Shown here: piece after piece, positions 3 to 17,920 of the stretch
Numbering within the stretch: the stretch's first letter is position 1
Layout of the letters: each line of letters starts with the position of its first letter
Assembly: GCF_032598905.1 (NCBI RefSeq)
Contig: NZ_CP122458.1
Coordinates: forward strand, 10,069,001 to 10,133,000
Direction of reading: 5' to 3'
Length of the DNA stretch: 64,000 nucleotides
Origin: Streptomyces sp. 11x1
GTDB taxonomy: Bacteria; Actinomycetota; Actinomycetes; Streptomycetales; Streptomycetaceae
Notes under the pieces: generated by a model
What the model was told of the DNA's origin: nothing
The model's input: the letters and a program-made list of their open reading frames with translations, nothing else
Databases searched by the model: none
Made by a program: the position numbers and the translations under genes

Positions 3-944
3 GGTGAGACGGCCGGACTCCCCCTGGAGGAAGACGAGTTGGTCACCGGTGAGCACTCCGGCATGAAGGTGCTGCCGCAACAGCCCGCGGACAACCCCAA
101 CCTGGCGCTCGCCCTCGACGACAACGACATCGCCTGGCTCGGCTCCGACAACTCCCGCGAGCCCGTCCAGCGGCAGGTCGGCCCCGCCACGACCGTGCCC
201 CGCCACCCGATGAACGTCTTCTACAACGCCGGCCGCGCGGCCGAACAGGTCGACGAGTACAACTGGATCTACACCGGCCGCGCACAGGGCGGCAGCGGCA
301 TCTGCGAGGACAACCCCGCCACCACCACCTGCCTCACCGCACCGCTGGACCCGGCCACCGGGTACGAAGAGGTCATCGTGCCGCTGGAGAAGCGGATCGC
401 TCTCGGCCACGTCCTCGCCGGCGACCCCAAGCCGCACTTCATCCACCAGTCGAACCTGGCCGAGGACCGCATCGCCTACCCGGTGCTCGACGGCGTCCTC
501 GACGGCTATGCGGCCCTGTTCGCCGAGAACACCCCCGTGGTCAACCTGCGGATGAAGGACATCGGCGCCGAACTCCGCCGCAGGGCCGCCTGGCAGGCCG
601 CGCTGCAGGCCGGTGACGTCACCGCCCATCGCATCGGCGACACCGTCACCGTCGAGGCACCGGACGGCCTGGCGATCACCGTCACCGCGCCCACCGGCAG
701 CACCCTCGCCGGTTCCGCCTTCGGCGACGCCTACGCGGGCTCCGTCTCCGGCTGGACCCCCTCCACGGGCGCCCCCCTCTCCCTCGGCCTGCCCGCCTCC
801 GCCGGCCCCTCGGCCGCCGACGCCTCCGGGCCCGTCGAGACCACGGCCCCCGCACCGGACACCCGAGTTCCAGCGGGCGTGAGCGAGAGAGTGCCGTACA
901 CCGCGGAATCCGTCACCTCGGACTCCACCACCGCGGACGACTGA
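3..944 (+). CDS. Agd3-like polysaccharide deacetylase, C-terminal part (5' end outside window)
   Basis: The reading frame is open from the window edge (base 3) to TGA at 942-944, so this is the last ~313 residues of a larger protein. The visible part has a conserved-looking block (PRHPMNVFYN, DEYNWIYTGR, KPHFIHQSNL) and ends in a Ser/Thr/Pro/Ala-rich tail of about 60 residues. These blocks resemble the C-terminal half of the Agd3 (CE18) exopolysaccharide deacetylases that act on fungal galactosaminogalactan; that match is from memory. The inferred role is to partially de-N-acetylate an amino-sugar polymer outside the cell. The genes that follow (PelF-like GT4, spherulin-4, GH114) fit. The catalytic domain and signal peptide lie outside the window. 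It could instead be an unrelated secreted hydrolase. Confidence 0.6.
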   Translation, partial: GETAGLPLEEDELVTGEHSGMKVLPQQPADNPNLALALDDNDIAWLGSDNSREPVQRQVGPATTVPRHPMNVFYNAGRAAEQVDEYNWIYTGRAQGGSGICEDNPATTTCLTAPLDPATGYEEVIVPLEKRIALGHVLAGDPKPHFIHQSNLAEDRIAYPVLDGVLDGYAALFAENTPVVNLRMKDIGAELRRRAAWQAALQAGDVTAHRIGDTVTVEAPDGLAITVTAPTGSTLAGSAFGDAYAGSVSGWTPSTGAPLSLGLPASAGPSAADASGPVETTAPAPDTRVPAGVSERVPYTAESVTSDSTTADD

Positions 945-1036
945 CCCGCGGCACCCGCCCATCGAGCCGTCCCGGCCGCACTGCACCGGCCGGGACCGGC
1001 AGGAACCACCCCACACCACGGCCGTGGAGCACACCG

Positions 1037-2545
1037 ATGCCCGTTCCGCACGACGCGCGCCGACTCGGCGCGGCGCGCGTCACCCTCCTCACCGAAGGCA
1101 CCTATCCCCACAGCCACGGCGGCGTCAGCGTCTGGTGCGACCAACTCGTCCAGGGCATGCCGGACCTCGACTTCGACGTCATCGCCGTCACCGGCACCGG
1201 ACGCGAACCCCTCGTCTGGGACCTGCCCGCACACGTCGTCCGTGTGCTGTCGGTCCCCATGTGGGGCGACCCGCCCGAGGGCCGCGAGCCCCGGGGCCGT
1301 GCCCGTCACCGGCTCGTCGGCGCCTATGAGCGGTTCCTCACCGCCCTGCTCGACCCGGGGGCCGAGGACGGCTTCGCGCCCGCCCTGTACAAGCTGGCCC
1401 GGGCAGCGGAGGACGGCGCACTCAGCCCCTACCTGCGCTCGGACCGGGCCATCGCCCAGCTGACCGCCGTCTGGAACCGCCCCGGCCTCGCCGTCCGCGA
1501 GGCCCGCCCCACGCTGCACGACGCGCTCACCGCGACCTCCCTGCTCGAACACGCCCTGCGCCCGCTCGCCGCACCGGCTCCCGAGACCGGCGTCGCGCAC
1601 GCCGTCAGTGGCGGTGTCGCCGTCCTGCCGGGCCTCACCGCTCTCGAACGGCACGGCGTCCCCCTGCTGCTGACCGAACACGGCGTCTATCTGCGCGAGC
1701 GCTACCTCGGCTACCGCACCGCCCCCTACCGCTGGCCCGTGAAGGCGGTCGTCCTCGGCTTCTTCCGCCTCCTCGCCGAGGAGACCTACCGGCGGGCGGC
1801 CCTGATCACCCCGGGCAACCGCTACAACCGGCTCTGGGAGGAACAGGGCGGCGCCGACCCCGAGTCGATCCGTACCGTCTACAACGGCGTCGACCCCGCC
1901 GCGTTCCCGCCCGCCGGGCCCGAACCGGAGACGCCCACCCTCAGCTGGGCGGGCCGCGTCGACCCCATCAAGGACCTGGAGACCCTCATCCGGGCGTTCG
2001 CCCTCGTCAGGGCGGAACTCCCGGGCGCGCGACTGCGGTTGTTCGGCGGGACGCCGCGCGGCGGCGAGGCCTACCGGGACCGCTGCGAGGCCCTCGCCGC
2101 CGAGCTGGGCCACGGCGACGCCGTCACCTTCGAGGGCCGCGTCGACGACATCAAGGACGCCTACGCCGCCGGCAACGTCGTCATGCTCTCCAGCATCAGC
2201 GAAGGCTTCCCCTTCACCCTCATCGAGGCCATGTCCTGCGGGCGGGCCACCGTCTCCACCGACGTGGGCGGTGTACGCGAGGCCGTCGGCGACAGCGGGC
2301 TCGTGGTGCCGCCGCGCGACCCGGAGGCGATGGCGAAGGCCGCGCTGGAGCTGCTGGGCGACCCGGCGCGCCGCCGGGCCATGGGGGAGGCGGCCCGGCT
2401 CCGGGTGATCGAGCAGTTCACCCTCCGCCGGACCATCGACACCTTCCGCTCCATCTACCTCGAACTGCCCACCCTGGAAAGGCGATCGGCGACCGTCGAC
2501 ATCCCGGCGCCGACGCCCGCTCCGATCAGCACGGTGGCCGGATGA
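1037..2545 (+). CDS. PelF-like GT4 glycosyltransferase (DUF3492 + GT4)
   Basis: A 502-residue cytoplasmic glycosyltransferase. The N-terminus carries the PelF/DUF3492 signature TEGTYPHSHGGVSVWCDQL. The C-terminal half is a GT-B GT4 domain with the nucleotide-sugar motif SEGFPFTLIEAMSCG (E-x7-E, near residues 389-397) followed by DVGGVREAV. PelF polymerises Pel from UDP-GalNAc/UDP-GlcNAc in Pseudomonas, and Gtb3 does a similar job for fungal GAG. This is therefore the likely polymerase of the locus, probably using a UDP-N-acetylhexosamine. The ATG at 1037 follows a GTGGAG ribosome site, and the stop overlaps the next start (ATGA). The fold is certain; the donor sugar is inferred. Confidence 0.85.
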   Translation: MPVPHDARRLGAARVTLLTEGTYPHSHGGVSVWCDQLVQGMPDLDFDVIAVTGTGREPLVWDLPAHVVRVLSVPMWGDPPEGREPRGRARHRLVGAYERFLTALLDPGAEDGFAPALYKLARAAEDGALSPYLRSDRAIAQLTAVWNRPGLAVREARPTLHDALTATSLLEHALRPLAAPAPETGVAHAVSGGVAVLPGLTALERHGVPLLLTEHGVYLRERYLGYRTAPYRWPVKAVVLGFFRLLAEETYRRAALITPGNRYNRLWEEQGGADPESIRTVYNGVDPAAFPPAGPEPETPTLSWAGRVDPIKDLETLIRAFALVRAELPGARLRLFGGTPRGGEAYRDRCEALAAELGHGDAVTFEGRVDDIKDAYAAGNVVMLSSISEGFPFTLIEAMSCGRATVSTDVGGVREAVGDSGLVVPPRDPEAMAKAALELLGDPARRRAMGEAARLRVIEQFTLRRTIDTFRSIYLELPTLERRSATVDIPAPTPAPISTVAG

Positions 2546-3960
2546 GCGGCCCCCTGTCACTCGAACCCGGCGGCGTCGAACAGGACACCCTCGCCATCCG
2601 GCTGGCCGACCGGCGCCGCCCGCGCCGCCGCCCCAGCTGGGCCTTCGGTGACGACACCACCCTCACCATCCGGCTCCCGCACCAGGGCCCGGACGAGGAC
2701 GCGGTCAACGCACTCGCCGCCGAACTGGCCGACCGCGTCGGCCCCGCCGTCCACCCGTACGAAGTGGCCGCCCTGCTGGAGGCGGAGGGCCTGTCCGCCT
2801 CCCTCATCAAGGAACGCTACGGCCACCCGAACCTGTTCTCGCTGGCCTCGGCCCTGTACGAACGGGTGCCGAGGACGTTCCCCGAACCCGCGCCGGGCGT
2901 CGACCCCTGGCGCCCGGACACCCCGCGCTGCCTGCTGCGGGGCCTCCTCTTCGCACTGCCAGGCCTCGCCTATCTGCTGACCGCCCCGCTGTGGAACCCC
3001 GGCGCGCACGCCCCCGCGCTCATCGTGGCGGGACTCGTCTCCTGGGCCTGGGGCCAGGCCCTCGGCCACCGTGCCCATCTGCGGATGGCGACCGGGCCGC
3101 GTGAGGCGGGCCGTACGCTCCTGACCGGCGCGCCCGTCGGAGCGCTGCTCGCCACGGCCGTCGCCGCGCTGCCCGCCGACGGCGGACCCGTGACCCTGGT
3201 GGCCGCCGCACAGTCCGCGTACCTCGCGGCGGCCGGCGTCCTGCTGGTACTCGGGCGGGAACGCCAACTCCTCGCCGCGCTCAGCCCGTTGATCGCCGGG
3301 GCCGCCGTCCTCCCCTGGTGGGAACCGGGACCGTGGCTCCGCGCCGGACTGCCCCTCCTCGCCCTGCTCGCCACCCTCGCCGTCACCGGCCGGACCCTGC
3401 GGACCACCCACGCCGCACCGGCCGTCCCGGACGCCCGCCGCCCCCGCCCGCTGTGGTCCCTGCCGTACGGCCTCTTCGGACTGGCCGCCGGTGTCCTCGT
3501 GCTGCTGGAGGGCCGGCAGGAGCCGTACGCGGTGATCGTGCTGACGGTGAGCATGGGCCCCGCGGAATGGCTGCTCCACCGCTACCGGGGACTGTCCGTC
3601 TCCGCGCTGCGTGCCGTCGCGACCCCCGCCGGGTTCCTGCTGCGCTCGGCAGGCATCCTCGGCCTCTGCCTGCTCGCCTACCTGCTGCCGCTGCTGCCCG
3701 CAGCCCTGCTCACCGACGCCGACCCCGTCCCGCTGCTGCTGCTCGCCGCCGTCCTGTGGACCGCGCTGCTGCTGCAGGCCTTCGGGGCGGCCTGGCCGTC
3801 GGCCGCCATCTGTCTCGCGGCGGCCGGCGCCGCCGGGACGGTCACCCTGCTGCGCCTGCCACCGGGCGACCTGGCGCTGCCCCTGTGCTGCGCCGCCGCC
3901 GCGCTCTGTCTGTCGGCGTGCGCGCTGCGGCTGCTCGGCCGGCCCGCACCGCACGCCTGA
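2542..3960 (+). CDS. Polytopic membrane protein with N-terminal cytoplasmic domain (candidate export/synthase partner)
   Basis: A 472-residue protein translationally coupled to the GT4 gene by an ATGA overlap. Residues 1 to about 135 are hydrophilic, with many Arg and acidic residues. From about residue 138 to the end it alternates Leu/Ala/Val-rich hydrophobic stretches with short polar loops, giving roughly 10-12 membrane segments. I do not recognise a named family. Its place beside the PelF-like transferase suggests it fills the role of PelG (the MATE-like membrane partner of PelF) or another exporter, but I see no convincing PelG signature. The cytoplasmic head could dock the glycosyltransferase. 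Function is inferred from context only. Confidence 0.6.
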   Translation: MSGPLSLEPGGVEQDTLAIRLADRRRPRRRPSWAFGDDTTLTIRLPHQGPDEDAVNALAAELADRVGPAVHPYEVAALLEAEGLSASLIKERYGHPNLFSLASALYERVPRTFPEPAPGVDPWRPDTPRCLLRGLLFALPGLAYLLTAPLWNPGAHAPALIVAGLVSWAWGQALGHRAHLRMATGPREAGRTLLTGAPVGALLATAVAALPADGGPVTLVAAAQSAYLAAAGVLLVLGRERQLLAALSPLIAGAAVLPWWEPGPWLRAGLPLLALLATLAVTGRTLRTTHAAPAVPDARRPRPLWSLPYGLFGLAAGVLVLLEGRQEPYAVIVLTVSMGPAEWLLHRYRGLSVSALRAVATPAGFLLRSAGILGLCLLAYLLPLLPAALLTDADPVPLLLLAAVLWTALLLQAFGAAWPSAAICLAAAGAAGTVTLLRLPPGDLALPLCCAAAALCLSACALRLLGRPAPHA

Positions 3961-4039
3961 GCCCCGTGCTCACCACGACCACCGCACACCCCCCCACGTG
4001 CCACCCCCACACAACCGACCGACCGGAAGGACACACCAG

Positions 4040-5041
4040 TTGACCTCCGCACCGCTCGCCGCCGTCACCGGAGCCGAGGGCTTCATCGGCTCGCACCTGA
4101 CCGAGGCGCTCGTCGCCTCCGGACACCGGGTCCGGGCCATGGCCCAGTACAACTCCTTCTCCTCCTACGGCTGGCTGGAGACCCTGCACCCGGACGTCCT
4201 GGACCAGGTCGAGATCGTCCTCGGCGACGTCCGCGACCCCGGCTCCGTTCGCGGTCTCCTCGACGGCGCCGACACCGCGTACCACCTGGCCGCCCTCATC
4301 GCGATCCCGTACTCCTACCAGGCGCCGCACAGCTACGTGGACACCAATGTCACCGGCACCCTCAACGTCCTGGAGGCCGTCAGAACCCTCGGCACACCCC
4401 GCCTGGTGCACACCTCCACCAGCGAGACCTACGGCACCGCGCGGACCGTGCCGATCACCGAGGACCACCCCATCAACACCCAGTCCCCGTACGCCGCCTC
4501 GAAGGCCGGCGGGGACCGACTGGCCGACAGCTACCACGCGAGCTTCGACACCCCGGTCGTCACCCTGAGACCCTTCAACACCTTCGGGCCCCGCCAGTCG
4601 ATGCGCGCGGTGATCCCCACGGTGATCGGGCAGGTCGCGGCGGGGGAGCGCACCATCACCCTCGGCGATCTGCGCCCCACCCGGGACTTCACCTTCGTCA
4701 AGGACACCGCGCAGGCGTTCCTGACCGTCGGCACCGCTCCCGCCGACAAGGTCGTGGGCCGCACCTTCAACGCCGGCACCGGGTGCGAGATCTCCGTCGG
4801 CGACCTAGTCGCGCTGATCGGCAAGGTCATGGACAGCGCACTCGACGTCCGCGAGGACGAGGCACGCATCCGGCCCGCGAACTCCGAGGTCATGCGGCTC
4901 GTCGCCGACGCGAGCCGGCTGACCGCCGCCACCGGCTGGCAGCCCGCCCACACCCTGGAGGAAGGCCTCGCGCACACCGTGGAGTTCTTCCGCGACCCGG
5001 CCAACCTCGCCCGCTACAAGACCGGCATCTACAACATCTGA
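4040..5041 (+). CDS. LegB-like NDP-sugar 4,6-dehydratase (extended SDR)
   Basis: A 333-residue extended short-chain dehydrogenase. It has the NAD-binding motif GAEGFIGSHL near residues 11-20, TSTSETYG, and the catalytic YAASK (Tyr ~151, Lys ~155). The patterns YNSFSSYGWLETL, AALIAIPYSY and VPITEDHP are characteristic of LegB-type UDP-GlcNAc 4,6-dehydratases of the legionaminate pathway rather than plain GalE epimerases. It should make a 4-keto-6-deoxy UDP-amino sugar. The TTG at 4040 is chosen because GGAAGGA sits 9-15 bases upstream and the Rossmann motif begins soon after; an open frame running further upstream overlaps the membrane protein and is not used. A reductase gene follows two genes later. 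Confidence 0.8.
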   Translation: MTSAPLAAVTGAEGFIGSHLTEALVASGHRVRAMAQYNSFSSYGWLETLHPDVLDQVEIVLGDVRDPGSVRGLLDGADTAYHLAALIAIPYSYQAPHSYVDTNVTGTLNVLEAVRTLGTPRLVHTSTSETYGTARTVPITEDHPINTQSPYAASKAGGDRLADSYHASFDTPVVTLRPFNTFGPRQSMRAVIPTVIGQVAAGERTITLGDLRPTRDFTFVKDTAQAFLTVGTAPADKVVGRTFNAGTGCEISVGDLVALIGKVMDSALDVREDEARIRPANSEVMRLVADASRLTAATGWQPAHTLEEGLAHTVEFFRDPANLARYKTGIYNI

Positions 5042-5082
5042 CTCCCGTCCACGCACGGCACGAAGCACGAAGGAGGAGCACC

Positions 5083-5796
5083 ATGCACGCAGTGATCCTG
5101 GCGGGAGGCAAGGGCGTCCGGCTGCGGCCCTACACGACCGCGCTGCCGAAGCCGCTCGTCCCCATCGGCGACCAGCACGCCATCCTGGAGATCGTGCTGC
5201 GCCAGCTCTCCACGGCCGGCTTCACCCATGTCACCATCGCCATCGGCCACCTCGGCGAGATCATCCGTGCCTACGTCGGCGACGGCTCCCAGTGGGGCCT
5301 GACCGTCGACTACGCCCCCGAGGAGAGCCCGCTGGGCACCATGGGCCCGCTGCTCAACCTGCGCGAGAAGCTGCCCGAGTCGTTCCTCGTGATGAACGGC
5401 GACATCCTCACCGACCTCGACTACGCCGACGTCCTGCGCCGGCACCGGGATTCCGGGGCGCCGCTCACCATCGCCACCTACACCCGCGAGGTCCACATCG
5501 ACTTCGGTGTCCTGACCACCGACGACAGCAAGGTCGTCGCCTTCACCGAGAAGCCGAGCATGGACTACCGCGTCTCCATGGGCGTCTACGGCGTCTCCCG
5601 CTCCACCCTGGAGGGCTACACCCCCGGACTGCCGCTGGGTTTCGACGAGTTGGTCCTCGATCTGATAAGCACTCAGAACCAGCCGCACGCCTACGACTTC
5701 GACGGGTACTGGCTGGACATAGGCCGACCGGACGACTACGACCGGGCCAACGCCGAGTTCACCACCCGCAAGTCGCTTCTGCTCAAGGGAGCCTGA
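5083..5796 (+). CDS. Sugar-1-phosphate nucleotidyltransferase
   Basis: A 237-residue GT-A-like nucleotidyltransferase. It has the signature GGKGVRLRPYT at residues 8-18, LPKPLVPIG at about 21-29, and the metal-binding NGDILTD near residue 105. It activates a hexose- or hexosamine-1-phosphate with NTP. Length is typical of the short RfbA/PtmE-like group that lacks the C-terminal beta-helix of GlmU. The ATG at 5083 is preceded by a strong AGGAGG. It lies 41 bases after the dehydratase and 7 bases before the second SDR, so it is clearly in the operon. It presumably supplies the NDP-sugar for the PelF-like transferase; which base and sugar it prefers cannot be read. Confidence 0.85.
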   Translation: MHAVILAGGKGVRLRPYTTALPKPLVPIGDQHAILEIVLRQLSTAGFTHVTIAIGHLGEIIRAYVGDGSQWGLTVDYAPEESPLGTMGPLLNLREKLPESFLVMNGDILTDLDYADVLRRHRDSGAPLTIATYTREVHIDFGVLTTDDSKVVAFTEKPSMDYRVSMGVYGVSRSTLEGYTPGLPLGFDELVLDLISTQNQPHAYDFDGYWLDIGRPDDYDRANAEFTTRKSLLLKGA

Positions 5797-5803
5797 GCAC
5801 CAC

Positions 5804-6874
5804 ATGCGCATTCTCGTCCTGGGTTTCACCGGCTATCTGGGCACCCATGTCGTCGAGGGGCTGCGTGGCCTGCCGGGCGCGCTGGTCCTCGGCGGGGGAC
5901 GCGGACCCACCGCCGACCACACCGTGGACCTCGCCACCATCGGCCCACCGGAACTGGCGAAGATCCTGGCCTCGGCCGCACCCGACACCGTGGTCAACTG
6001 CGCGGGTGCGACCGGCGGCGATCCCGTGACCCTCGCCGAGGTCAACGCCCGTGGCCCCGCCGTTCTGTGCGCCGCGCTCCGCGAGGCCGCCCCGGGCGCC
6101 CGGCTGGTGCACCTGGGCTCGGCCGCCGAGTACGGGCCCGGTGTCCCGGACATCCGGGTCACGGAGTCGGCGGCCACCCGTCCGGTCGCCCCCTACGGCG
6201 CTACCAAGCTCGCGGGCACGGTCGCCGTCACCGCCTCCGGCCTGGACGCGGTGGTACTGCGCGTCGGCAACCCGGTCGGCCCCGGCGCGCCCCCGGCCGG
6301 CCTCCCCGGCCGCATCGCCACGCTCCTCCGCACGGCCGGCCCCGACCCCGACGCGGTCCTGCCTCTGGGCGACCTCTCCGCGTACCGCGACTTCGTCGAC
6401 GTACGCGACGTCACCCGGGCGGTCGCCCTCGCGGCCACGGCTCCCGGTCCGCTGCCCCGCATCCTCAACATCGGCGGAGGCAGGGCCGTCCCGGCCCGCG
6501 AGGTGGTCCGGGGCCTGGCGGCCAAGGCCGGCTTCCGCGGCCGCATCGAGGAGAACGCGCTGGGCGCGGGGGCGCGCGGCCGCCCGAGGGCGGTGGGTGT
6601 CGCGGGGCCGGGTAGGGGTGGGGCCGGTCCCTCCTCCCCTGCGACGCCCGCCGAGGCCGGGGTGGTGACAGCCCCTGGGGCTGCCGTCCCGGCGTCGACG
6701 GCCGGTTCCGTCCGATCGGCGGACGTGTCGTGGCAGTGCTCCGACATCACCGCCGCCGAGGCGGCGCTCGGCTGGCGGCCCCTGCACAGCCTGGACGACG
6801 CGCTCACCACGCTGTGGGAGAGCGGACGGGAAGACAACGGCGGGGGCGGCGGGAAAGGTGACCGTACGTCGTGA
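5804..6874 (+). CDS. SDR NDP-sugar reductase/epimerase with internal low-complexity linker
   Basis: A 356-residue extended SDR with the N-terminal glycine motif GFTGYLGTHV, an NCAG segment, and catalytic YGATK. It resembles 4-ketoreductases/epimerases (RmlD- or GalE-like) and would logically reduce the 4-keto sugar made by the LegB-like enzyme. The Rossmann core runs to about residue 255. A Gly/Ala/Pro-rich stretch of about 45-50 residues then separates it from a final segment (ALGWRPLHSLDDAL) typical of the SDR C-terminus. Such an insert is unusual within the substrate domain. The stop overlaps the next gene (GTGA). Confidence 0.75.
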   Translation: MRILVLGFTGYLGTHVVEGLRGLPGALVLGGGRGPTADHTVDLATIGPPELAKILASAAPDTVVNCAGATGGDPVTLAEVNARGPAVLCAALREAAPGARLVHLGSAAEYGPGVPDIRVTESAATRPVAPYGATKLAGTVAVTASGLDAVVLRVGNPVGPGAPPAGLPGRIATLLRTAGPDPDAVLPLGDLSAYRDFVDVRDVTRAVALAATAPGPLPRILNIGGGRAVPAREVVRGLAAKAGFRGRIEENALGAGARGRPRAVGVAGPGRGGAGPSSPATPAEAGVVTAPGAAVPASTAGSVRSADVSWQCSDITAAEAALGWRPLHSLDDALTTLWESGREDNGGGGGKGDRTS

Positions 6875-7533
6875 GTCTGCTGATCCCGCTCTACGTCCAC
6901 CCGGCCGAGGACCCGGGCGCCTGGCACCGTCTGATCACGGCGGCGCCCCGCACCTACGCCGTCGTCCTCAACCCCGCCAACGGCCCCGGCGACGTCCCCG
7001 ACCCCGCCTTCACCGCGGCGGCCGGGGCCCTGCGCGCGGCCGGGGCCCGGCTGCTCGGCTACGTCGACACCGACTACGGGGTGCGCGACCGCGCCGAGAT
7101 CGCCGACGACGTACGCCGTCACCGGGAGTGGTACGCGGCCGACGGCTGCTTCCTCGACCAGGTGACGGCGACCCCGGACGGCCTGCCCGCCTGCCGCAGG
7201 CTCGTCCGGGCCGTCCGCCGGCTCGGCGCCGCCACCGTCGTCCTCAACCCCGGCGTCCACCCGGCGCCGGGCTACGCCCGTCTCGCCGACCTGACCGTCA
7301 CCTTCGAGGGACACTGGTCGACGTACGTGTCGGCGTTCAGCCGGCCCGCCTGGGCCGCCCGCCACCCGCCCGAGCGGCTCTGCCACCTCGTCTACGGCGT
7401 CCCCGAGGCCCTCGTCCCGCTCGCCGTGCGCACCGCGCACGACCGGGGCGCCGCCGTCTGCGGCCCGGTGACCGGGGAACCACCCAACCCCTGGGCCCAG
7501 TTGACGCCCGCCCTCACCGGGACGGACCGATGA
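6871..7533 (+). CDS. Spherulin-4 family protein (GH135-like hydrolase)
   Basis: A 220-residue protein starting LLIPLYVHP, with VVLNPANGPG, a central DGCFLDQV segment and VVLNPGVHP. This is the spherulation-specific family 4 (PF12138) pattern, which includes Aspergillus Sph3, the GH135 enzyme needed for galactosaminogalactan synthesis. No signal peptide is visible, so unlike Sph3 it may be cytoplasmic or leave by another route. GTG at 6871 overlaps the upstream stop and its own stop overlaps the next start (ATGA), implying co-translation with the GH114 gene. Its likely job is to cleave the N-acetylated polymer during synthesis or length control. Confidence 0.8.
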   Translation: MSLLIPLYVHPAEDPGAWHRLITAAPRTYAVVLNPANGPGDVPDPAFTAAAGALRAAGARLLGYVDTDYGVRDRAEIADDVRRHREWYAADGCFLDQVTATPDGLPACRRLVRAVRRLGAATVVLNPGVHPAPGYARLADLTVTFEGHWSTYVSAFSRPAWAARHPPERLCHLVYGVPEALVPLAVRTAHDRGAAVCGPVTGEPPNPWAQLTPALTGTDR

Positions 7534-8333
7534 GGAGGCCGACGTTCGCGTACGCGGCGCTGCTGGCCGCCCTGGTGGCCTCGACCCTGGCGGGCTGCGG
7601 CGACTCCGAGCCGGACAACGAATCCACGTCCGGGCCACGCTGGAATCCCCGGCCCGGTCTCGCCTGGCAGTGGCAGCTGGACGGCAGGGTCGACCCCTCG
7701 GCGGACGTCCCCGTCTACGACATCGACGGCTTCGAGAACTCCGCCGCCGACGTGGCCCGGCTGCACCGGGACGGCCGCAAGGTCATCTGCTACATCAACG
7801 TCGGAGCCTGGGAGGACTTCCGGCCCGACAAGGACGCCTTCCCGCGCTCGCTGCTCGGCGAGGAGAACGGCTGGGCGGGCGAGCGCTGGCTGGACATACG
7901 GCAGGTGGACGTCCTGCGGCCCCTCATGGAACGCCGCTTCGACATGTGCCGGGACAAGGGCTTCGACGCGGTGGAGCCCGACCTGATGGAAGGCTACGGC
8001 GACGACACCGGCTTCCCCCTCACCGCGCGCGACCAGCTGACCTACAACCGCATGATCGCCGACATCGCCCACGAGCGCGGCCTGGCGGTGGGCCTGAAGA
8101 ACGACCTGCCCCAGATACCCCAGCTGCTGGCCGACTTCGACTTCGCGGTCAACGAGGAGTGCGCCCAGTACGACGAATGCGCGCGGCTCTCGCCCTTCAT
8201 CGAGGCCGGCAAGGCGGTTTTCCACGTCGAGTACACCGAACCCAGGAGCCGCTTCTGCGCGGAGTCCCGCCGGCTCGGGCTCTCGTCCATGGTCAAACGA
8301 CTGGAGCTGGGGGTGTGGCGCCAGCCATGCTGA
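7530..8333 (+). CDS. Endo-alpha-1,4-polygalactosaminidase family lipoprotein (GH114)
   Basis: A 267-residue protein with a lipoprotein signal (about 20 residues, lipobox LAGC, Cys near residue 23), so it is probably anchored outside the membrane. The mature part is a GH114 (beta/alpha)8 domain: WQWQLDG, VPVYDIDGFEN, VICYINVGAWEDFRPD, and the diagnostic FDAVEPDLMEGY with acidic catalytic candidates. GH114 includes Aspergillus Ega3 and the hydrolase domain of PelA, which cut alpha-1,4-linked galactosamine polymers. Its coupling to the spherulin-4 gene is the strongest sign that the polymer is galactosaminogalactan- or Pel-like. It is the last intact gene of the locus. Confidence 0.88.
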   Translation: MRRPTFAYAALLAALVASTLAGCGDSEPDNESTSGPRWNPRPGLAWQWQLDGRVDPSADVPVYDIDGFENSAADVARLHRDGRKVICYINVGAWEDFRPDKDAFPRSLLGEENGWAGERWLDIRQVDVLRPLMERRFDMCRDKGFDAVEPDLMEGYGDDTGFPLTARDQLTYNRMIADIAHERGLAVGLKNDLPQIPQLLADFDFAVNEECAQYDECARLSPFIEAGKAVFHVEYTEPRSRFCAESRRLGLSSMVKRLELGVWRQPC

Positions 8334-8706
8334 GCGCGGGCCGCCCAGGTGGACGCCGCCCCGCGGCCGCCCCACACCGCGTTCCGCCGGGGCGTGCATC
8401 TGCCCGACGGGCCCACCCCCGAGGGGTTCCGGCGCGTGGGGATCGACATCGGTCCCCTCCTGCGGGAGGCCGCCGAGCTGTGTCCGGCCACGAGGACACG
8501 TACGGCATGGGCTCGATGCGCGACTTCCTCCCGCGCACCGCCCGCTGACGACCTCCGGCGGCGCCCCCTCGCGTCCGCGACGCTGTGTCGTCGCTCGTGC
8601 AACCGTGCGTGACGGACGGTTCTCCTGGAACGAGAACCGCGCCCACGCGGCTCTCGGCTCCTATGGTGGAGATCACAGGCTGGCAACGGACGCTGAGGCG
8701 GCGACC
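8334..8706 (+). other. Intergenic region with a possible gene remnant (8358-8548)
   Basis: This 373-base gap contains no intact gene. One plus-strand frame reads RRVGIDIGPLLREAAEL up to about 8482. A second frame, starting at about the same point, continues with HEDTYGMGSMRDFLPRTAR and stops at 8548. Joined by a frameshift these look like one C-terminal protein tail, so a decayed gene is plausible, but I cannot name the family. The remaining 150 bases before the phosphatase probably carry its promoter; I see no convincing -35/-10 pair. Confidence 0.3.
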
Positions 8707-9936
8707 ATGGCGGATACGGCGATCGACTACGCGGCGGTGTTCCAGGCACTGCCGGGCATGGTGGCGCTGCTGACACCCGAGCTGGTGTACGCGGACGCGA
8801 ACGAGGAGTTTCTGCGGATGTCGGGGCGCACCCGCGAGCAGGTGGTGAACCGGTATCTCTTCGACGTCTTCCCCGACAATCCCCGGGACCCGTCCGCGAG
8901 CGGGATGCGGAATCTGGCGGCCTCGCTCAACCGCGTGGTGGAGACCGGTGAGAGGGACTCGATGGCGTTGCAGCGCTACGACGTGGAGTCGGTGGAGCGG
9001 CCGGGGGAGTGGGAGGAGCGGTACTGGAGCCCCGTGAACGCGCCGGTGCTCGACTCCGACGGGAAGGTGGTGCTGCTGATCCACAAGGTGGAGGAGGTCA
9101 CCGAGCTGATCCGCGCCCGCGAGCGCGCCCCCGGCGACCGGGCCCGCGTCATGGAGGCCGAGCTCTACACCCGCGCGCGGGAGCTGCAGGAGGTCAACGA
9201 ACGGCTGCGCGAGGCACACGCCCATGAACGGGACGTCGCGCTCACCCTGCAGAAGGCGATGCTGCCCGCGCCCGACCCGATCGGGAACCATCGGGCGGCC
9301 GTCCGCTACCAGCCGGCGACGGACGCCCTGAACGTGTGCGGCGACTGGTACGACCTGGTCGACCTGTCCGGCGTCGACCGTGTCGGGATCGCCGTCGGTG
9401 ACGTGGTCGGTCACGGTCTGGCCGCCGCCTGTGTCATGGGCAAGCTCCGCAGCGCGCTGAGCGCCGCGTCCCTGGTGGCCGACGGTCCCGCCCAGGCGCT
9501 GGACGCGCTCGGCCTGTACGCCCGCTCCGTCGACGGCGCCGAGAACACCACTGTCGTGCAGACCTGCGTCGACTGGGACACCCACACCATCAGCTACAGC
9601 AGCGCGGGCCATCTGCCACCCGCCCTGCTGTGCCATGACGGCACGGTCGTCTTCCTCGACGGGGCCACCGACCCGCCGCTCGGCGCCCGCCCCGAGCACA
9701 CCCCCCGCCCCGAGGCCACCCTGGACTTCACCGAGGGCGACACCCTGGTCCTCTACACGGACGGTCTGATCGAACGCCGTGACGAGGACATCTACGCCGG
9801 CCTCGGCCGCCTCGCCCAGGCGCTCACCCGCCATCGCCGCTCCGCCCCCGAGCTTCTCGCCGACGCCCTGCTCCTCGACCTCCTCCACCACGGCCGCGCC
9901 ACCGACGACACGGCCCTCGTGATCCTTCGGCTGTGA
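8707..9936 (+). CDS. PAS-PP2C (SpoIIE-type) serine phosphatase
   Basis: A 409-residue regulator of the RsbP type. Residues ~8-120 form a PAS sensor (FQALPGMVALLTPEL, ADANEEFLRMSGRTREQVV). A helical linker of about 50 residues (ELQEVNERLREAHAHE) leads to a PP2C/SpoIIE catalytic domain from ~residue 175, with GDWYDLV, GDVVGHGLAAA and LYTDGLIERR carrying the metal-binding Asp residues. Such proteins dephosphorylate anti-anti-sigma factors in partner-switching cascades. No anti-sigma or anti-anti-sigma gene adjoins it, so the target is elsewhere. The ATG at 8707 is preferred over upstream in-frame GTGs because the PAS domain begins immediately after it. It converges on the ligase gene. Confidence 0.88.
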   Translation: MADTAIDYAAVFQALPGMVALLTPELVYADANEEFLRMSGRTREQVVNRYLFDVFPDNPRDPSASGMRNLAASLNRVVETGERDSMALQRYDVESVERPGEWEERYWSPVNAPVLDSDGKVVLLIHKVEEVTELIRARERAPGDRARVMEAELYTRARELQEVNERLREAHAHERDVALTLQKAMLPAPDPIGNHRAAVRYQPATDALNVCGDWYDLVDLSGVDRVGIAVGDVVGHGLAAACVMGKLRSALSAASLVADGPAQALDALGLYARSVDGAENTTVVQTCVDWDTHTISYSSAGHLPPALLCHDGTVVFLDGATDPPLGARPEHTPRPEATLDFTEGDTLVLYTDGLIERRDEDIYAGLGRLAQALTRHRRSAPELLADALLLDLLHHGRATDDTALVILRL

Positions 9937-10027
9937 GACGCACTGCCGGTGGCCGCCACGGGCACCGGCCGCCGAGCCACCCCGAGGCCCCGCCGCGTGA
10001 CGCCGCTCACCGCGGCGCCACGAACGG

Positions 10028-12130
10028 TCAGTCCAGGAAGTCGGCCACCAGCGCGGCGAACTCGTCCGGGCCGGCCAGGCGGATGCCGAGGGCCTCGGCC
10101 TTGGCACGCTTGGAGCCGGCGTTCTCTCCCGCGACGACCAGGGACGTCCTCTTGGAGACGCTGGAGGAGGCGCGGCCCCCGGCGCGCTCGACGAGTTCGT
10201 TCATCTGGTTGCGGCTGAGCTTCTCCAGGACGCCGGTCATCGCGCCCGTGACCACCACGGCCATCCCGGCGAGCGGCCCGCCCGGGGCCCCGGCGCCCTC
10301 CTCGGCGGCGGAGTCCTCGGCGTCGGGGGAGTCCTCGCCGGCCGGCGCGGGAGGTGTGGCGCCCGGCTCGGTCATGTTCACCCCGGCAGCCACGAGCTTG
10401 TCGATGAGCGGGGCGAGCTCGGAGAGTTCGGCCACGATCGACGGGGCCTTCTCGGTGCCGATGCCCTCGACCCGCTGGATCGCCTCGGCGTCCGCGGCCC
10501 GGATGTTCTCCATGGTGGCGAAGTGGCGGGCGATACGGCGGGACATGGAACGTCCGGTGCCCCGCACCCCCAGCGCGCACAGCACCCGCGACAACGGCCG
10601 CCCCTTGGCAGTCTCCAGCGCGGCGAGGAGATTGTCGGTGCTGGTCTCCCCCATGCGCTCCAGCCCGAGGAGCTGCTCCCGGGTGAGGGCGAACAGGTCC
10701 GCGAGGTCGGCCACCAGGCCCGCCTCGACGAGCTGGACGACCCGGGTGTGCCCGAGCCCCTCCACATCGAGCTGGTCGCGGCCGACGGCGTACGACAGGG
10801 AGGCCACCAGATGGCAGTTGCGGCCGTTCTCGCAGCGCCAGCGCTGCTCGCCGGTGTCGATGCCGGACCCGCATCTGGGGCACACCTCGGGGAACACGAT
10901 GGGCTGTTCCTCGCCGGTGCGCAGATGGGCGACGGGCGCCTCCACGCGGGGGATCACGTCACCGGCGCGGTGCACCATGACATGGTCGCCCAGCCGCAGG
11001 TCGCGGCGCGTGATGTCGGCCGGGTTGTGCAGGGTGGCGTACGTGATGGTGGAGCCGTCGATCTCGACGGGTTCCAGCACACCGCGCGGCGCGATGATGC
11101 CGGTGCGGCCGACGTTCCACTGCACCTCCAGAAGCCGCGTGATCTTCTCGACGGCGGGCAGCTTGTAGGCGATCGCCCAGCGCGGGGCTCGGGAACCTGA
11201 CCCGGCGGCCCGCTGGTCGGCGGCCAGGTCGGCCTTGACGACGATCCCGTCGATCCCGAAGGGCAGCCCGGCCCGCAGCGCGGCGATCTCCGTCACCCGG
11301 GCGAGCACCTCCTCGACGGAGGCGGCGGTGACACCGGGCACGGCCGTGCTCGCGGTGGTGTTGACGCCCAGTTCTGCGGCTCGCGACATCAGCTCGCTGT
11401 GGGCGAGTTCGGTCAGCCGGGCGGCGTCGACGGCGTCCGTGCCCGGCAGGGCCAGCAGCCCGTACCCGAAGAACGTCATCGGCACGGTGTAGGCACGCTC
11501 CTTGGCGCGCAGGGTGCCCGCCGCGGCGTTGCGCGGGTTCGCGAACGGCTGCCCGCCGTGCTCGGTGCGTATCTCGTTGGCGTGCTCGAACTGGGCGGTG
11601 GTCATGAGGACTTCGCCCCGCACCTCGACCGTGACCGGCTCGGTGAGCTCGTCCGGCAGCCCCTCGATGGTGCCGATGGCGTGCGAGACGTCCTCCCCGG
11701 CCGTTCCGTCGCCACGGGTGATCAACCGCGTGAGCCGGCCCCGTGTGTAGCGTGCGGCGACCGCGAGCCCGTCGAGCTTGGGCTCCACGCTGAACCGCTC
11801 CACGTCGTGCCCGATACGCCGGGCCAGCGACGCCGTCCACGCGGTGAACTCCTCGCCCGAGAACACGTTGTCCAGGCTCAGCATCGCCGCCGTGTGGGGC
11901 ACGTCCCCCTCGACCGCGCCACCGGCGACCTTGCCGGTGGGCGAGTCGGGCAGGACCAGATCGGGATGCTCGGCCTCCCACGCCGCGATGCCGCGCACGA
12001 GCCGGTCGTAGGTGTCGTCGTCCAGCGCCGACGTACCCCCGGTGTAGTAGGCGGCCGAGGCCCGCACCGCGTCCTCGACGGCCTGTGCGTAGGCGGCGGC
12101 ATCCACGATCACTGCAGCTGATGTCGTCAT
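10028..12130 (-). CDS. ligA: NAD+-dependent DNA ligase LigA
   Basis: A 700-residue bacterial DNA ligase that seals nicks with NAD+. It has the Ia-type N-terminus ([10 protein letters not shown]), the adenylation site [13 protein letters not shown] with the AMP-accepting Lys, and the RGDG motif. These are followed by an OB fold, a four-Cys zinc site (CPRCG near residue 416 and a later CENGRNC), helix-hairpin-helix repeats and a C-terminal BRCT domain ending ADFLD. An acidic linker of about 35 residues ([16 protein letters not shown]) precedes BRCT. Streptomyces commonly carry more than one ligase gene; the sequence alone does not say whether this is the essential copy. No operon partner. Confidence 0.95.
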
Positions 12131-12187
12131 GCCCCCATCCTGCCGCCCACCACTGACAACGCCCCCGAACCGGCGGCGCGCGGGGCC

Positions 12188-12640
12188 TCAGCCCTTCGGC
12201 CGGGTGCAGCGGACACTGTTGCCGAAGGGGTCGCGCAGACCGCAGTCGACGCCGTAGGGGCGGGCAGCCGCGGCGCCTCCTTGCGGTACTGCCGCGGCGA
12301 AGTGCCGCGATGTCGCGGAAGGTGCGGCTGAAGGTCCCCGGGCCGGCGAAACGGAGCCGCACGTCCGTCAGGTCCATTCGCACGGGGAGGCGTTCCGCGT
12401 CCAGCAGTGCGCGTCGGCTGTTGAACCACGGTGTGTCGGCTCCGGCGAACGCCTCTCCTTGCCACAGTCCCAGAGCCTCCTCCCCGCACGCCACCGCCCG
12501 CTCGTCCGCGCCCGCCGGCGCGGCCCGGCTCGTCAGCTCGCGGAACCGGTGCGCGTCGACCGCCGACGGCTCGACGGCGATGCGGTAACCGCCCTGCTCG
12601 CGCACGATGTCCACGCCACCGGGGTCAACGCCCGGCCCCG
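12188..12640 (-). pseudogene. Fused remnants: SARP BTAD domain, AraC HTH end, VOC C-terminus
   Basis: Read on the minus strand, 12640-12400 encodes part of a bacterial transcriptional activation domain (GGYRIAVEPSAVDAHRFREL, LGLWQGEAFAG, SRRALLDAERL). Near 12357 this runs into the end of an AraC helix-turn-helix (AGPGTFSRTFRDI), which needs a frame change to continue as GTSPRQYRKEA. A third frame then gives a VOC/glyoxalase C-terminus (YGVDCGLRDPFGNSVR) ending at 12188. None has a start or full domain. This is a deletion scar joining at least two former loci. Confidence 0.6.
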
Positions 12641-12707
12641 AGGATCCGCCGTTGATGCGCGGGGCCGACCTCCAGGGCCCGTTCGTCAGGGTTCCGTGGA
12701 ACGCGAA

Positions 12708-12738
12708 CCGCCCGCCGGGCGGAAGGCCCGGCGGGCGG
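12708..12738 (-). terminator. Stem-loop terminator downstream of the GAPDH gene
   Basis: A perfect 13-bp inverted repeat (arms 12708-12720 and 12726-12738) with a 5-base loop lies 36 bases past the GAPDH stop on the minus strand. No U-tract follows, as is usual for Streptomyces terminators. Confidence 0.6.
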
Positions 12739-12773
12739 CGGGTGTCACATGGGAGGGCGCTCGGCCCGGTGGA

Positions 12774-14228
12774 TCAGACCGCCGGTGCCGGGTACGTCGG
12801 GTACTCCACCCCGGAGACGTGCTGGACGACCCGGATGACCTGGCAGGAGTAGCCGAACTCGTTGTCGTACCAGAGGTAGAGGATCGCGTTGTCGCCGTCG
12901 ACCTTGGTGGCACCGGCGTCGACGATCGAGGCGTGGCGGGAGCCGATGAAGTCGCTGGAGACCGAGTCGGGCGCGTTGGTGAAGTCGATCTGGCGCTTGA
13001 GCGGCGAGGTCAGCGAGACGCCCCGGAGGTAGTCGAGGACCTCCTCGCGGTCCGTCTCACGGCCGAGGCGCAGGCTGAGGATCGCGATGGAGACGTCCGG
13101 GACGGGGACGCGGATCGAGCTGCCGGTGATCGGCGCCTTCAGGTCGGGCAGCGCCTTGGCGACGGCCGAGGCGGCACCCGTCTCGGTGATGACCATGTTG
13201 AGCGGCGCGGAGCGGCCACGACGGTCCGACTTGTGGTAGTTGTCCAGCAGGTTCTGGTCGTTGGTGAACGAGTGGACGGTCTCCACGTGACCGCGCAGCA
13301 CACCGAACTCGTCGTCCATCGCCTTCAGCGGCGGCACGATCGCGTTGGTCGTGCAGGACGCGCAGGACAGGATCTGCTCGTCCGGCTTGATCGTGTGGTG
13401 GTTGACACCGTGCACGATGTTCGGGACGTCGCCCTTGCCGGGCGCGGTCAGCACGACCTTGTCGATACCGGGACGCAGGTGTTTCGACAGCCCCTCGCGG
13501 TCGCGCCACTTGCCCGTGTTGTCGATGAGGATGGCGTTCTTGATGCCGTACTCGGTGTAGTCGACCTCGGACGGGTCGCCGGCGTAGATCACCCTGATCT
13601 CGTTGCCGTTGGCGTTGATCGTGCTGGTGGCCTCGTCGACGGTGATCGTGCCCTGGAACTGGCCGTGGATGGAGTCCCGGCGCAGCAGCGAGGCGCGCTT
13701 GACGATATCCTCTGCGGCCCGACCCCCACCGCCGCGCACGACGATGGCCCGCAGCCGCAGGCCGTTGCCGGAGCCGGCCTTCTCGATGAGCAGGCGGGCG
13801 ACGAGGCGGCCGATGCGACCGAAACCGTAGAGGACGACGTCGCGGCCCTCGCCGCCCTCGATCTTGTTGGCGCCGGTGGCACCGGCGACGGCCTCGGCGG
13901 TGAACTCCGCGACCGACAGTCCCCGGTCGTCGGCCTGGTGGGCCTCGGCGAGCAGGCCGATGTCGATCTGCGAGGGGCCGAGGTCGAGCGTGGTGAGGGC
14001 CTGGAGGAACGGCAGGGTGTCGGTGACCGAGAGCTCCACGCCGGCGATCTGGCGGGCGAACCGGTGGGTCTTCAGGATGCTGACCACCGACTTGTTCACC
14101 AGGGAGCGGCTGTGCAGCAGAACCGTCACGTCCCGCTCGCGGTGCAGCTTCCCGATGATCGGGATCATCGATTCCGCGATCTCCTCGCGGTGCTTCCAGG
14201 CGGTGAACGAGTCCTCGTTACGAGTCAC
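12774..14228 (-). CDS. gap: Glyceraldehyde-3-phosphate dehydrogenase, long form
   Basis: A 484-residue GAPDH, about 150 residues longer than the classic enzyme. Residues 1 to ~128 are an N-terminal extension (HREEIAESMIPIIGKLHRERDV...). The Rossmann domain then starts with VVLYGFGRIGRLVARL. The catalytic cysteine lies in SCASCTTNAIVP near residue 290. It interconverts glyceraldehyde-3-phosphate and 1,3-bisphosphoglycerate. Streptomyces genomes often hold this long form beside a conventional Gap, so it is probably an auxiliary or gluconeogenic isozyme; cofactor preference cannot be read reliably. The start is GTG at 14228 with only a weak GAAAG upstream. The gene is flanked by decayed DNA on both sides and stands alone. 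Confidence 0.9.
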   Translation of the reverse strand: MTRNEDSFTAWKHREEIAESMIPIIGKLHRERDVTVLLHSRSLVNKSVVSILKTHRFARQIAGVELSVTDTLPFLQALTTLDLGPSQIDIGLLAEAHQADDRGLSVAEFTAEAVAGATGANKIEGGEGRDVVLYGFGRIGRLVARLLIEKAGSGNGLRLRAIVVRGGGGRAAEDIVKRASLLRRDSIHGQFQGTITVDEATSTINANGNEIRVIYAGDPSEVDYTEYGIKNAILIDNTGKWRDREGLSKHLRPGIDKVVLTAPGKGDVPNIVHGVNHHTIKPDEQILSCASCTTNAIVPPLKAMDDEFGVLRGHVETVHSFTNDQNLLDNYHKSDRRGRSAPLNMVITETGAASAVAKALPDLKAPITGSSIRVPVPDVSIAILSLRLGRETDREEVLDYLRGVSLTSPLKRQIDFTNAPDSVSSDFIGSRHASIVDAGATKVDGDNAILYLWYDNEFGYSCQVIRVVQHVSGVEYPTYPAPAV

Positions 14229-14331
14229 AGGTTTATCTTTCGAGCTAGGCGGCGCTCATATGCTAACCATCCCGCTCGGAGGAGACGCACCGAGGGGTGC
14301 GGATCGCATCCCGCCCTCTGGGCCACGCGGC

Positions 14332-15572
14332 TCAGGCGCCGCCCTCGCGCAGCTCGTCGCGGGTCTGCAGGGCCGCCAGTGCCGCCCGGGACATGACGCC
14401 CGTCTTGCGGTAGATGCGGGACAGGTGGGTCTCGACCGTGCGCGGACTGAGGAAGAGCCGCTCGGCGATGGGGCGGGACTGGTCAGGCCCTTCGCGACGA
14501 GGGCGGCGATCTCCCGCTCCCGCGCGGACAGCACGGCCAGCTCCTCGGACACCCTGTCGCGCGCCGACGCGCCGGCGTCCCCGCCCGTGCCCTGCGACGT
14601 CGCCGACTCCACGAAGACCGCCGGGCGGATCACCTCCGCGAGGCCCGTCAGCAGGTGTGCACCGGTCCCCTCGCTCAGCCGCACGGCGCGCTCCCACATG
14701 GCGCGGGCCGGGCGGCCTCCGTGAGCACGGCCACGGCATCCGGGGCGAAGCCGGTCAGCGCCCGCTCCATGTGGTGCGCACACTCGCTGACCGGCGCTTC
14801 GATCCGGGCCAGTTCGACGGCGGCGAGGTGGTGCATCCGGGTGCGCAGCGTGGGATCGATGCTGTCGTGGACTACGGACCGCAGCACCGGATGCCGGAGC
14901 GTCCAACGGCCGTCGGGCCCCGGCCACGCGAGATCCCGGGCGGTCAACTCACCGAAGTCCGCTTCGAGTTCGTGCTCGGGACGGCCGGTGACGGCCGCCA
15001 CCAGAGCGGGTGCGGCGTGGCCGCCGAGCACGGCCACGGCCTGGACCGTCCGGCGCGGGCCGTCGGTGAGGGGTGTCAGTTCGTCCAGCAGCAGCGAGCT
15101 GAGCCCCGCCGGCCTGCCGGCCTGGAGCAGGGCGAGGAAGTACAGCGGTGCACCGTCCCGGCCTCCACTCCCCGGGTGGGGGAGGCCGCGGGCCGGGGCG
15201 CGGTCTGCCGTTCACGCCGGGCCACCACGATCACCACGGGAGCGCGCCGCGGCGGATGCCGGACGCGGTGGTCGAGGAGTTCCAGGGAGGCCGGGTCGGC
15301 CCAGTGCACGTCGTCGAGGGCCACCACGAGACCGTCGCCCGCGCGCTGTCCGGGCCAGGAAGGCCGCCGCCGCGCGTTGCAGGGCGAAACGGTCCATGCT
15401 GTGGACCGGTCGCCCGGCGGCGCAGCACCGTCATGCCCCTGTCCCGCGCCCGTGCGCAGAACTCGGAGACCAGCCTGCTCTTGCCGATGTCACCGGTGAG
15501 TGCGTCGAGTACGCCGGTGAGGCGGGCCAGCTCGGTCTCCCGGCTCACCAGAGGAGCCACGTCCCACGGCAA
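14332..15572 (-). pseudogene. LuxR-family (LAL-type) regulator, frameshifted and deleted
   Basis: Pieces of one large ATP-binding LuxR regulator appear in order on the minus strand but in different frames. They are an N-terminus LVSRETELARLTGVLDAL with a damaged Walker A (DIGKSRLV, lacking the usual GxxG start), a Walker B block VALDDVHWADPASLELLDH near 15300, a middle region around 14700-15037, and a C-terminal HTH split between LSAREREIAALVAKGL and LFLSPRTVETHLSRIY, stopping at 14332. Intact relatives are about 2.7 kb; this is 1.24 kb, so deletions as well as frameshifts have occurred. Confidence 0.8.
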
Positions 15573-15615
15573 TGCGATTCCCCCCGAAGCGGGCCCTGGG
15601 CCGTCCCGGGCCGAT

Positions 15616-15643
15616 CCGGAGGTTCATGAACGCGAACCTCCGG
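15616..15643 (-). terminator. Stem-loop between fucosidase and LuxR remnant
   Basis: A perfect 10-bp inverted repeat, CCGGAGGTTC (15616-15625) and GAACCTCCGG (15634-15643), with an 8-base loop. It lies 60 bases past the end of the fucosidase gene and is the likely terminator for it. Confidence 0.5.
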
Positions 15644-17916: not shown

Positions 17917-17920
17917 CGGG

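What the first reader, a model, noticed from the sequence alone, without database searches (positions are those of the whole stretch)
3..8333. Bacterial counterpart of the fungal galactosaminogalactan cluster, with a PelF polymerase
In one packed operon lie an Agd3-like deacetylase end, a PelF/Gtb3-like GT4, epimerase/dehydratase-type SDRs, a spherulin-4 (Sph3/GH135-like) hydrolase and a GH114 (Ega3/PelA-like) lipoprotein. The fungal GAG cluster is known to contain five matching activities (uge3, sph3, gtb3, ega3, agd3), and Pel clusters share PelF and a GH114 domain. Finding all of them together in an actinomycete suggests a secreted, partly deacetylated amino-sugar polymer, and a possible link to the origin of the fungal cluster.
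Basis: partly seen in the sequence, partly recalled or inferred. Interest (0 to 1): 0.88.

Follow-up and report, generated by a model that had tools for sequence, protein, structure and literature searches.

The report
Bacterial cousin of fungal biofilm-sugar cluster
This Streptomyces gene cluster is a bacterial relative of the fungal and Pseudomonas machinery that makes sticky, positively charged amino-sugar polymers; such operons were already reported, but this version carries an extra sugar-making module and a matching enzyme change that point to a second, chemically different polymer.

Summary
The genes are real. The headline is not new: Agd3 operons with a glycosyltransferase, membrane protein, GH114 and sometimes spherulin-4, and the bacteria-to-fungi idea, are in PMC7229062. 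New here: (1) two cluster types share the core A-B-C-G-H; type I (this window) adds D-E-F and lacks a Uge3 counterpart. (2) In 10 of 10 genomes with two classifiable clusters, there is one of each. (3) The GH114 residue after the nucleophile is Leu/Val/Thr in 75 of 75 type I copies and Asn/Gln in 15 of 15 type II copies; Ega3 has Asn. (4) PelF and the membrane protein occur fused. (5) GH135 lacks an export signal. (6) One GalE-bearing sister cluster has all five GAG-type functions. Best reading: a Pel/GAG-type system whose type I form makes a partly deacetylated 6-deoxy-aminosugar polymer.

The parts
3..944 (+). Gene A, 3' part: CE18/Agd3-type secreted deacetylase (full gene starts 1,216 bases before the window, G000:C1:10067785)
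   Evidence: full gene; Pfam; motifs, profile chain to 6nwz
1037..2545 (+). Gene B: GT4 glycosyltransferase PelF (DUF3492)
   Evidence: E 2.1e-61; NCBIfam PelF 173.1 bits, cut-off 100
2542..3960 (+). Gene C: membrane protein, about 120-aa N-terminal domain plus about 12 helices of MATE/MOP fold; putative polymer exporter (PelG-like by fold only)
4040..5041 (+). Gene D: LegB-like NAD-dependent sugar 4,6-dehydratase (TTG start)
   Evidence: TIGR04180 452.4 bits, cut-off 475; STSETYG and YAASK/YAATK in 107 of 107 copies, duplicates included
5083..5796 (+). Gene E: sugar-1-phosphate nucleotidyltransferase
   Evidence: PF00483 E 7.4e-39
5804..6874 (+). Gene F: SDR, Rmd-like 4-keto-6-deoxy-sugar reductase
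   Evidence: best solved hit 2pk3, GDP-6-deoxy-D-lyxo-4-hexulose reductase, E 1.1e-14; fused to E in L136
6871..7533 (+). Gene G: GH135 / spherulin-4 hydrolase without signal peptide
   Evidence: no hydrophobic N-terminus
7530..8333 (+). Gene H: GH114 lipoprotein, endo-galactosaminidase-type; Leu after the nucleophile Asp

Best explanation
A Pel/GAG-type synthase-dependent exopolysaccharide operon. E activates a hexosamine 1-phosphate, D makes the 4-keto-6-deoxy sugar and F reduces it, giving an NDP-6-deoxy-N-acetylhexosamine, most likely FucNAc-like because the processing enzymes belong to galacto-specific families. PelF (B) polymerises it and the MOP-fold protein (C) carries the chain out. 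The secreted Agd3-type enzyme (A) removes some N-acetyl groups, making the polymer cationic. The GH114 lipoprotein (H), where present, trims deacetylated stretches at the surface, and the signal-less GH135 (G) acts in the cytoplasm on acetylated chains that are stalled or not exported. Shown by computation: gene identities, conserved order, B-C and E-F fusions, two cluster types, the GH114 residue switch. Inferred: the sugar, the linkage, each enzyme's substrate, and the cytoplasmic role of G.
For: Family assignments. Agd3 profile chain and four catalytic motifs. MATE/MOP fold of C (84) and natural PelF-C chains. D keeps STSETYG and YAA(S/T)K in 107 of 107 copies (107; their role in 4,6-dehydratases is recalled); F's nearest solved relative is an Rmd-type reductase; E and F are one chain in L136. 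None of the eight genes is an aminotransferase, so legionaminic acid or bacillosamine is unlikely. Type I, defined by having D, E and F, makes up 100 of 142 distinct loci; 23 others (type II) have B and C with G or H but no D or E (101, 116). In an unbiased scan of 231 GH114 columns, the residue after the nucleophile is the only one with no overlap between types.
Against: No chemistry: a 6-deoxy product is inferred from families, D is just under the LegB cut-off, and E's sugar and nucleotide are unknown. The residue switch is largely inherited: the PelF tree forces only two changes of type, the GH114 tree two or one, and one of L136's two GH114 copies falls inside the Streptomyces type I group. 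Leu next to the nucleophile could change something other than tolerance of C6. The Agd3-like and GH135 proteins show no fully type-specific column. GH135 has Gln or Arg where Sph3 has Glu after the catalytic Asp. GH114 is dispensable: 27 of 100 distinct type I loci show no GH114 hit, and 24 of those have 1 kb or more of fetched sequence beyond the last gene.
Confidence: 0.58

Rival explanations
1. The type I polymer is an ordinary GalNAc/GalN (Pel/GAG) polymer; D-E-F merely supply a side-chain, capping or co-monomer 6-deoxy sugar.
For: The processing enzymes belong to GalN/GalNAc-active families; fungal GAG is itself a heteropolymer (PMC4817252 passages); Agd3-like and GH135 proteins have no fully type-specific column.
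Against: GH114 and PelF do carry fully type-specific residues, which suggests that the backbone sugar differs; several genomes keep a separate type II system.
Confidence: 0.27
2. The operon makes a wall-bound glycan (teichuronic-type or glycoprotein decoration) rather than a secreted matrix polymer.
For: Streptomyces walls are reported to hold low levels of galactosamine-containing polysaccharide (PMC7229062 passage); no outer export machinery is needed in Gram-positives.
Against: A secreted polymer deacetylase with endo-hydrolases is typical of synthase-dependent exopolysaccharides; no LCP-type attachment enzyme is among the eight genes.
Confidence: 0.12
3. The operon degrades other microbes' Pel/GAG rather than making a polymer.
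For: Three of eight genes are hydrolases or a deacetylase; a signal-less GH135 could process imported oligosaccharides; the same genome has a separate GH114 gene.
Against: PelF, an exporter-type membrane protein and a sugar-nucleotide module are biosynthetic; no sugar importer is among the eight genes.
Confidence: 0.03

Closest known systems
Bacterial agd3-containing operons (Bamford et al. 2020, PMC7229062)
   Same: Agd3 homologue, cytoplasmic GT, multi-spanning membrane protein, GH114, and spherulin-4 in some Actinobacteria (passages)
   Different: Its main text has 0 occurrences of 'dehydratase' and of 'deoxy'; figures and supplements were not seen, so overlap with this exact operon is possible
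Fungal galactosaminogalactan cluster (uge3, sph3, gtb3, ega3, agd3)
   Same: Counterparts of agd3, sph3 and ega3, and of gtb3 as B plus C
   Different: No UDP-glucose 4-epimerase; 4,6-dehydratase, nucleotidyltransferase and reductase instead; synthase split in two genes; GH135 without export signal; GH114 Asn to Leu
Pel systems (P. aeruginosa pelABCDEFG; Gram-positive pelDEADAFG, PMC7112168, passages)
   Same: PelF; MOP-fold membrane partner (PelG as MOP-type is recalled); deacetylase
   Different: CE18 rather than PelA-type deacetylase; GH114/GH135; no PelD or PelE among the eight genes; C matches no Pfam family
MatAB / PNAG system of Streptomyces (PMC5972031, search listing and abstract start only)
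   Same: Hyphal aggregation polymer in the same genus, as a functional comparison
   Different: Unrelated synthase (recalled) and poly-beta-1,6-GlcNAc product

Membership tests
CE18 / Agd3 | Sequence-profile kinship to Agd3 | tested here: met
   Single protein below Pfam cut-off; 11 of 16 family members match Agd3_CE at E<=0.01, best 9.2e-7; no direct PDB hit but a profile chain to 6nwz
CE18 / Agd3 | Catalytic motifs CM1-CM4 (D377 D378; H510 H514; R613; H668) | tested here: met
   D269 D270; H360 H364; R473; H554. M666 is Phe or Tyr in this group
CE18 / Agd3 | N-terminal CBM87 domain | tested here: inconclusive
   PF25116 matched by 3 of 16 members, best E 3.4e-4; four intermediates exceed the cut-off; AF2 model too poor (pLDDT 47)
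CE18 / Agd3 | Metal-dependent GalNAc-polymer deacetylation | not testable with these tools
   needs enzyme assay
GH114 | PF03537 over cut-off; nucleophile Asp and acid/base Glu | tested here: met
   286.5 bits; D151 and the Glu kept
GH114 | Asn after nucleophile, as in Ega3 | tested here: not met
   Leu in the window; this is a consensus feature seen here, not a published family criterion
GH135 / Sph3 | PF12138 over cut-off; catalytic Asp and Glu | tested here: met
   122.9 bits; FLDQ and TFEG aligned to 5c5g
GH135 / Sph3 | Extracytoplasmic location (as proposed for Sph3) | tested here: not met
   Crude hydropathy test: 7 of 126 GH135 copies have a stretch >=1.8 near a possible start, against 70 of 93 GH114 and 111 of 143 Agd3-like copies (duplicates included)
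PelF | NCBIfam equivalog NF038011 | tested here: met
   173.1 bits, cut-off 100
Fungal GAG cluster | UDP-glucose 4-epimerase (Uge3) | tested here: not met
   GalE model 140 bits, cut-off 262; met in sister locus L135, 337 bits
Fungal GAG cluster | Single-chain membrane GT (Gtb3) | tested here: not met
   B and C are separate here; single-chain versions are P0294, P0298, P0300, P0303
Pel operon | PelG by sequence; PelD and PelE | tested here: not met
   No Pfam family on C at E<=0.01 or, for 20 relatives, any PelG match at E<=1; no PelD/PelE match among the eight genes; C shares the MOP fold
LegB (TIGR04180) | Score over curated cut-off | tested here: not met
   452.4 of 475 bits; best model by far
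MATE/MOP fold | 12-helix fold match | tested here: met

The most novel reading that the evidence does not exclude
Streptomycetaceae make two parallel cationic matrix polymers with related machinery: a GalN/GalNAc (Pel/GAG-like) one from type II clusters and a new 6-deoxy one, partly deacetylated alpha-1,4-poly-FucNAc, from type I clusters. One GH114 position (Asn to Leu beside the nucleophile) tunes the hydrolase to the missing O6, so each polymer resists the other's, and fungi's, galactosaminidases.
Probability: 0.35. Interest if true: 0.8.

Novelty: new variant of a known kind. Interest (0 to 1): 0.6.

Why it matters
If the type I polymer is a 6-deoxy Pel/GAG analogue, it would be a new class of bacterial matrix polymer in an antibiotic-producing genus whose hyphal clumping is an industrial problem. 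It would also supply hydrolases with new specificity and a simple test of how GH114 reads C6. The type II and GalE-bearing clusters are the closest bacterial matches to the fungal GAG cluster found here, so they are the right comparison set for the open question of where the fungal cluster came from.

Tried and rejected
AF2 of the Agd3-like protein failed (pLDDT 47; 33 rows, 72% or more identical to the first) and was not used. Single-protein and A2-profile searches of PDB found no Agd3; only the intermediate family did (113). A PelG match for C by sequence was not found. The idea that D is the Uge3 equivalent was rejected. The idea of one universal cluster was replaced by two types. The loci called 'other' (19 of 142 distinct) hold truncated, fragmented or variant clusters and were left out of the type tallies. 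Seven loci were duplicates between collections and were removed for the final counts; still contain them. The GH114 rule is not strictly Leu against Asn: one Thr (L147), one Val (L136) and one Gln (L152) occur. One distinct type I GH114 copy (L011) has lost the nucleophile and looks decayed. Motif patterns missed some copies; for GH135 I looked at the 10 missed ones and the Asp and Glu are kept in all, for the Agd3-like protein most misses were not followed up. PDB searches of D, E and F gave family, not substrate. PMC6746457 and the Sph3 paper are not held; Sph3 residue numbers are partly recalled.

Full report
WHAT IS THERE. The window lies at G000:C1:10069001-10133000 of a 10.7-Mb genome; the closest named proteins are from Streptomyces. 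Eight genes on the + strand form a tight operon, four of whose seven junctions overlap or lie within 10 bases: A (cut by the window edge), B 1037-2545, C 2542-3960, D 4040-5041, E 5083-5796, F 5804-6874, G 6871-7533, H 7530-8333. With the upstream sequence fetched, A is 719 codons with a signal-peptide-like start.

GENE A IS CE18. Alone it reaches only 17.5 bits against Pfam Agd3_CE (cut-off 27.6), and neither it nor its family profile finds Agd3 in PDB. Eleven of 16 relatives match Agd3_CE at E<=0.01, best 9.2e-7. Four intermediates from the same phylum match Agd3_CE and CBM87 over cut-off (L110-L113). Their profile aligns with A's family at 100% probability, E 1.6e-58, 513 columns and finds solved Agd3 6nwz at E 9.7e-51. 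The four catalytic motifs described for Agd3 (passages) align: HVDD, NHTYSH, PRHP, FIHQSNL; one intermediate (L112) lacks the Arg of CM3.

TWO CLUSTER TYPES. Samples: 41 genus genomes (C found in 22); phylum (A in 9 of 296, C plus fusions in 18 of 396, some only to the GT part or a short domain); class (C in 35 of 345, some only to a short N-terminal domain); family (A in 29 of 61); and 80 named loci (the best 80 of 562). From these I examined 149 loci, 142 after removing duplicates: 100 type I (D, E and F present), 23 type II (B and C with G or H, no D or E) and 19 truncated or other. Among type I, 66 read exactly ABCDEFGH and 21 ABCDEFG. Type II read mainly ABCGH (9), ABCG (7) and ABCH (3). 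Sampling leans heavily to Streptomyces: in the 80 named loci 71 have at least A-F, and the other nine end at a contig end. GH114 is missing from 27 of 100 type I loci, mostly not because of contig ends, and from 8 of 23 type II loci. In 10 of 10 genomes with two classifiable clusters (G006, G034, G167, G221, G452, G482, G491, G578, G602, G610) there was one of each type. G626, G017 and G678 have a type I plus an incomplete second locus without D-E-F. Second copies in G024, G038 and G641 were seen but not fetched. No genome with two of the same type was seen among those fetched.

PRECURSOR MODULE. D scores 452 bits on LegB (cut-off 475) and 140 on GalE (cut-off 262). Four relatives give 451-458 on LegB. 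STSETYG and YAA(S/T)K occur in 107 of 107 copies (duplicates included); a glutamate in this motif is typical of 4,6-dehydratases rather than epimerases (recalled). F's best solved relative is an Rmd-type 4-keto reductase, 2pk3. E is a sugar-1-phosphate nucleotidyltransferase of unclear specificity. E and F are one chain in L136, which links them to one pathway. None of the eight genes is an aminotransferase. The simplest product is an NDP-6-deoxy-HexNAc. In the sister locus L135 (another family of the class), the SDR is a GalE over cut-off (337 bits), beside PelF, C, two GH135 genes (one with a signal-like N-terminus), GH114 and an Agd3-like protein (47% identical to A); that locus holds all five GAG-type functions.

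MATCHING CHANGE IN GH114. The catalytic Asp and Glu (Ega3 Asp189/Glu247 in PMC12054363, passage) are kept. The next residue after the Asp is Asn in Ega3. Over distinct loci plus the window it is Leu 73, Val 1, Thr 1 in type I (one of the Leu copies has lost the Asp) and Asn 14, Gln 1 in type II; two incomplete clusters and the genome's own separate GH114 have Asn. A scan of 231 columns ranks this position first and as the only one without overlap. PelF has three such columns of 462 (window residues S26, G260, I372), the Agd3-like protein 0 of 621 and GH135 0 of 205; C was not scanned. Much of this is shared descent: the PelF tree forces at least two changes of type, the GH114 tree two or at least one with other sampling. 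L136, from a distant family with D-E-F, has Leu and Val. One of its GH114 copies sits beside L135 (GalE, Asn) in both trees (97/86, then 89/56); the other is a long branch whose place shifts, inside the Streptomyces type I group. The link to a missing O6 is my inference.

GH135 WITHOUT EXPORT SIGNAL. G starts at the barrel, overlapping F's stop. In a crude hydropathy test only 7 of 126 copies have a hydrophobic stretch near a possible start, against 70 of 93 GH114 and 111 of 143 Agd3-like copies. Sph3 is thought to work where the polymer leaves the membrane on the outside (PMC12054363 passage). A cytoplasmic enzyme would instead clear or size nascent acetylated chains; this is inferred.

WHAT IS KNOWN. 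PMC7229062 (passages; figures and supplements not seen) reports Agd3 homologues in 45 bacterial species. Of the 35 in its tree, 30 are in or near operons with carbohydrate-active enzymes; the operons identified all have a cytoplasmic GT and a multi-spanning membrane protein, very often GH114, and in some Actinobacteria spherulin-4. It also argues for transfer from bacteria. The main claim of the finding is therefore known. Searches showed, in the titles and abstract starts of their capped lists, nothing on a 6-deoxy variant, paired cluster types, PelF-membrane fusions or the GH114 switch; only open-licence PMC text is held.

VERDICT. A confirmed observation, mostly known in kind, with a new variant: a probable 6-deoxy-aminosugar branch of the Pel/GAG polymer family. 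Core system (secreted, partly deacetylated amino-sugar polymer) about 0.85 likely; 6-deoxy sugar in the polymer about 0.6; 6-deoxy backbone with tuned hydrolase about 0.35.

Noticed in passing
G000:C1 about 3.600 Mb (L137:7240-12798, - strand): A third related cluster in the same genome: PelF (107 bits, cut-off 100), a protein with C's N-terminal domain, an F-like SDR, and a GH135-like protein whose acid/base Glu is Ala (VTFAGPW). Short matches to C's N-terminal domain recur in about 30 of the 33 same-genus genomes listed (counted by eye; those loci were not fetched).
   Followed up: partly
G000:C1:7949746-7950555 (L107:9247-10056): A stand-alone GH114 lipoprotein gene of type II character (EPDNMDGY), far from any cluster, next to leucyl aminopeptidase-like and cobS-like genes (neighbours named by eye).
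   Followed up: partly
G000:C1:4948806-4949447 (L003): GH114 domain in one frame with a Ser/Thr protein kinase-like domain (named by eye); it too has Asn after the Asp.
   Followed up: no
L135 (G338, another family of the class), 224-11035: Cluster with GH114, two GH135, C, PelF, GalE and an Agd3-like protein with fibronectin repeats: the fullest bacterial match to the fungal five-gene set seen here.
   Followed up: partly
L112 (G243), 8735-19264: Variant with A, B, C, E, F, then a nucleotide-sugar dehydrogenase-like gene (named by eye) and another SDR: the precursor module looks exchangeable.
   Followed up: partly
L109 (G333): Agd3-like gene broken into five frames beside GH114 and PelF: a decayed cluster or poor assembly.
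   Followed up: no
window 8605-9936 and L004:5853-6375: Flanking genes: a PAS plus PP2C/SpoIIE-like phosphatase downstream and a small secreted protein upstream (both named by eye); not examined for a link to regulation.
   Followed up: no
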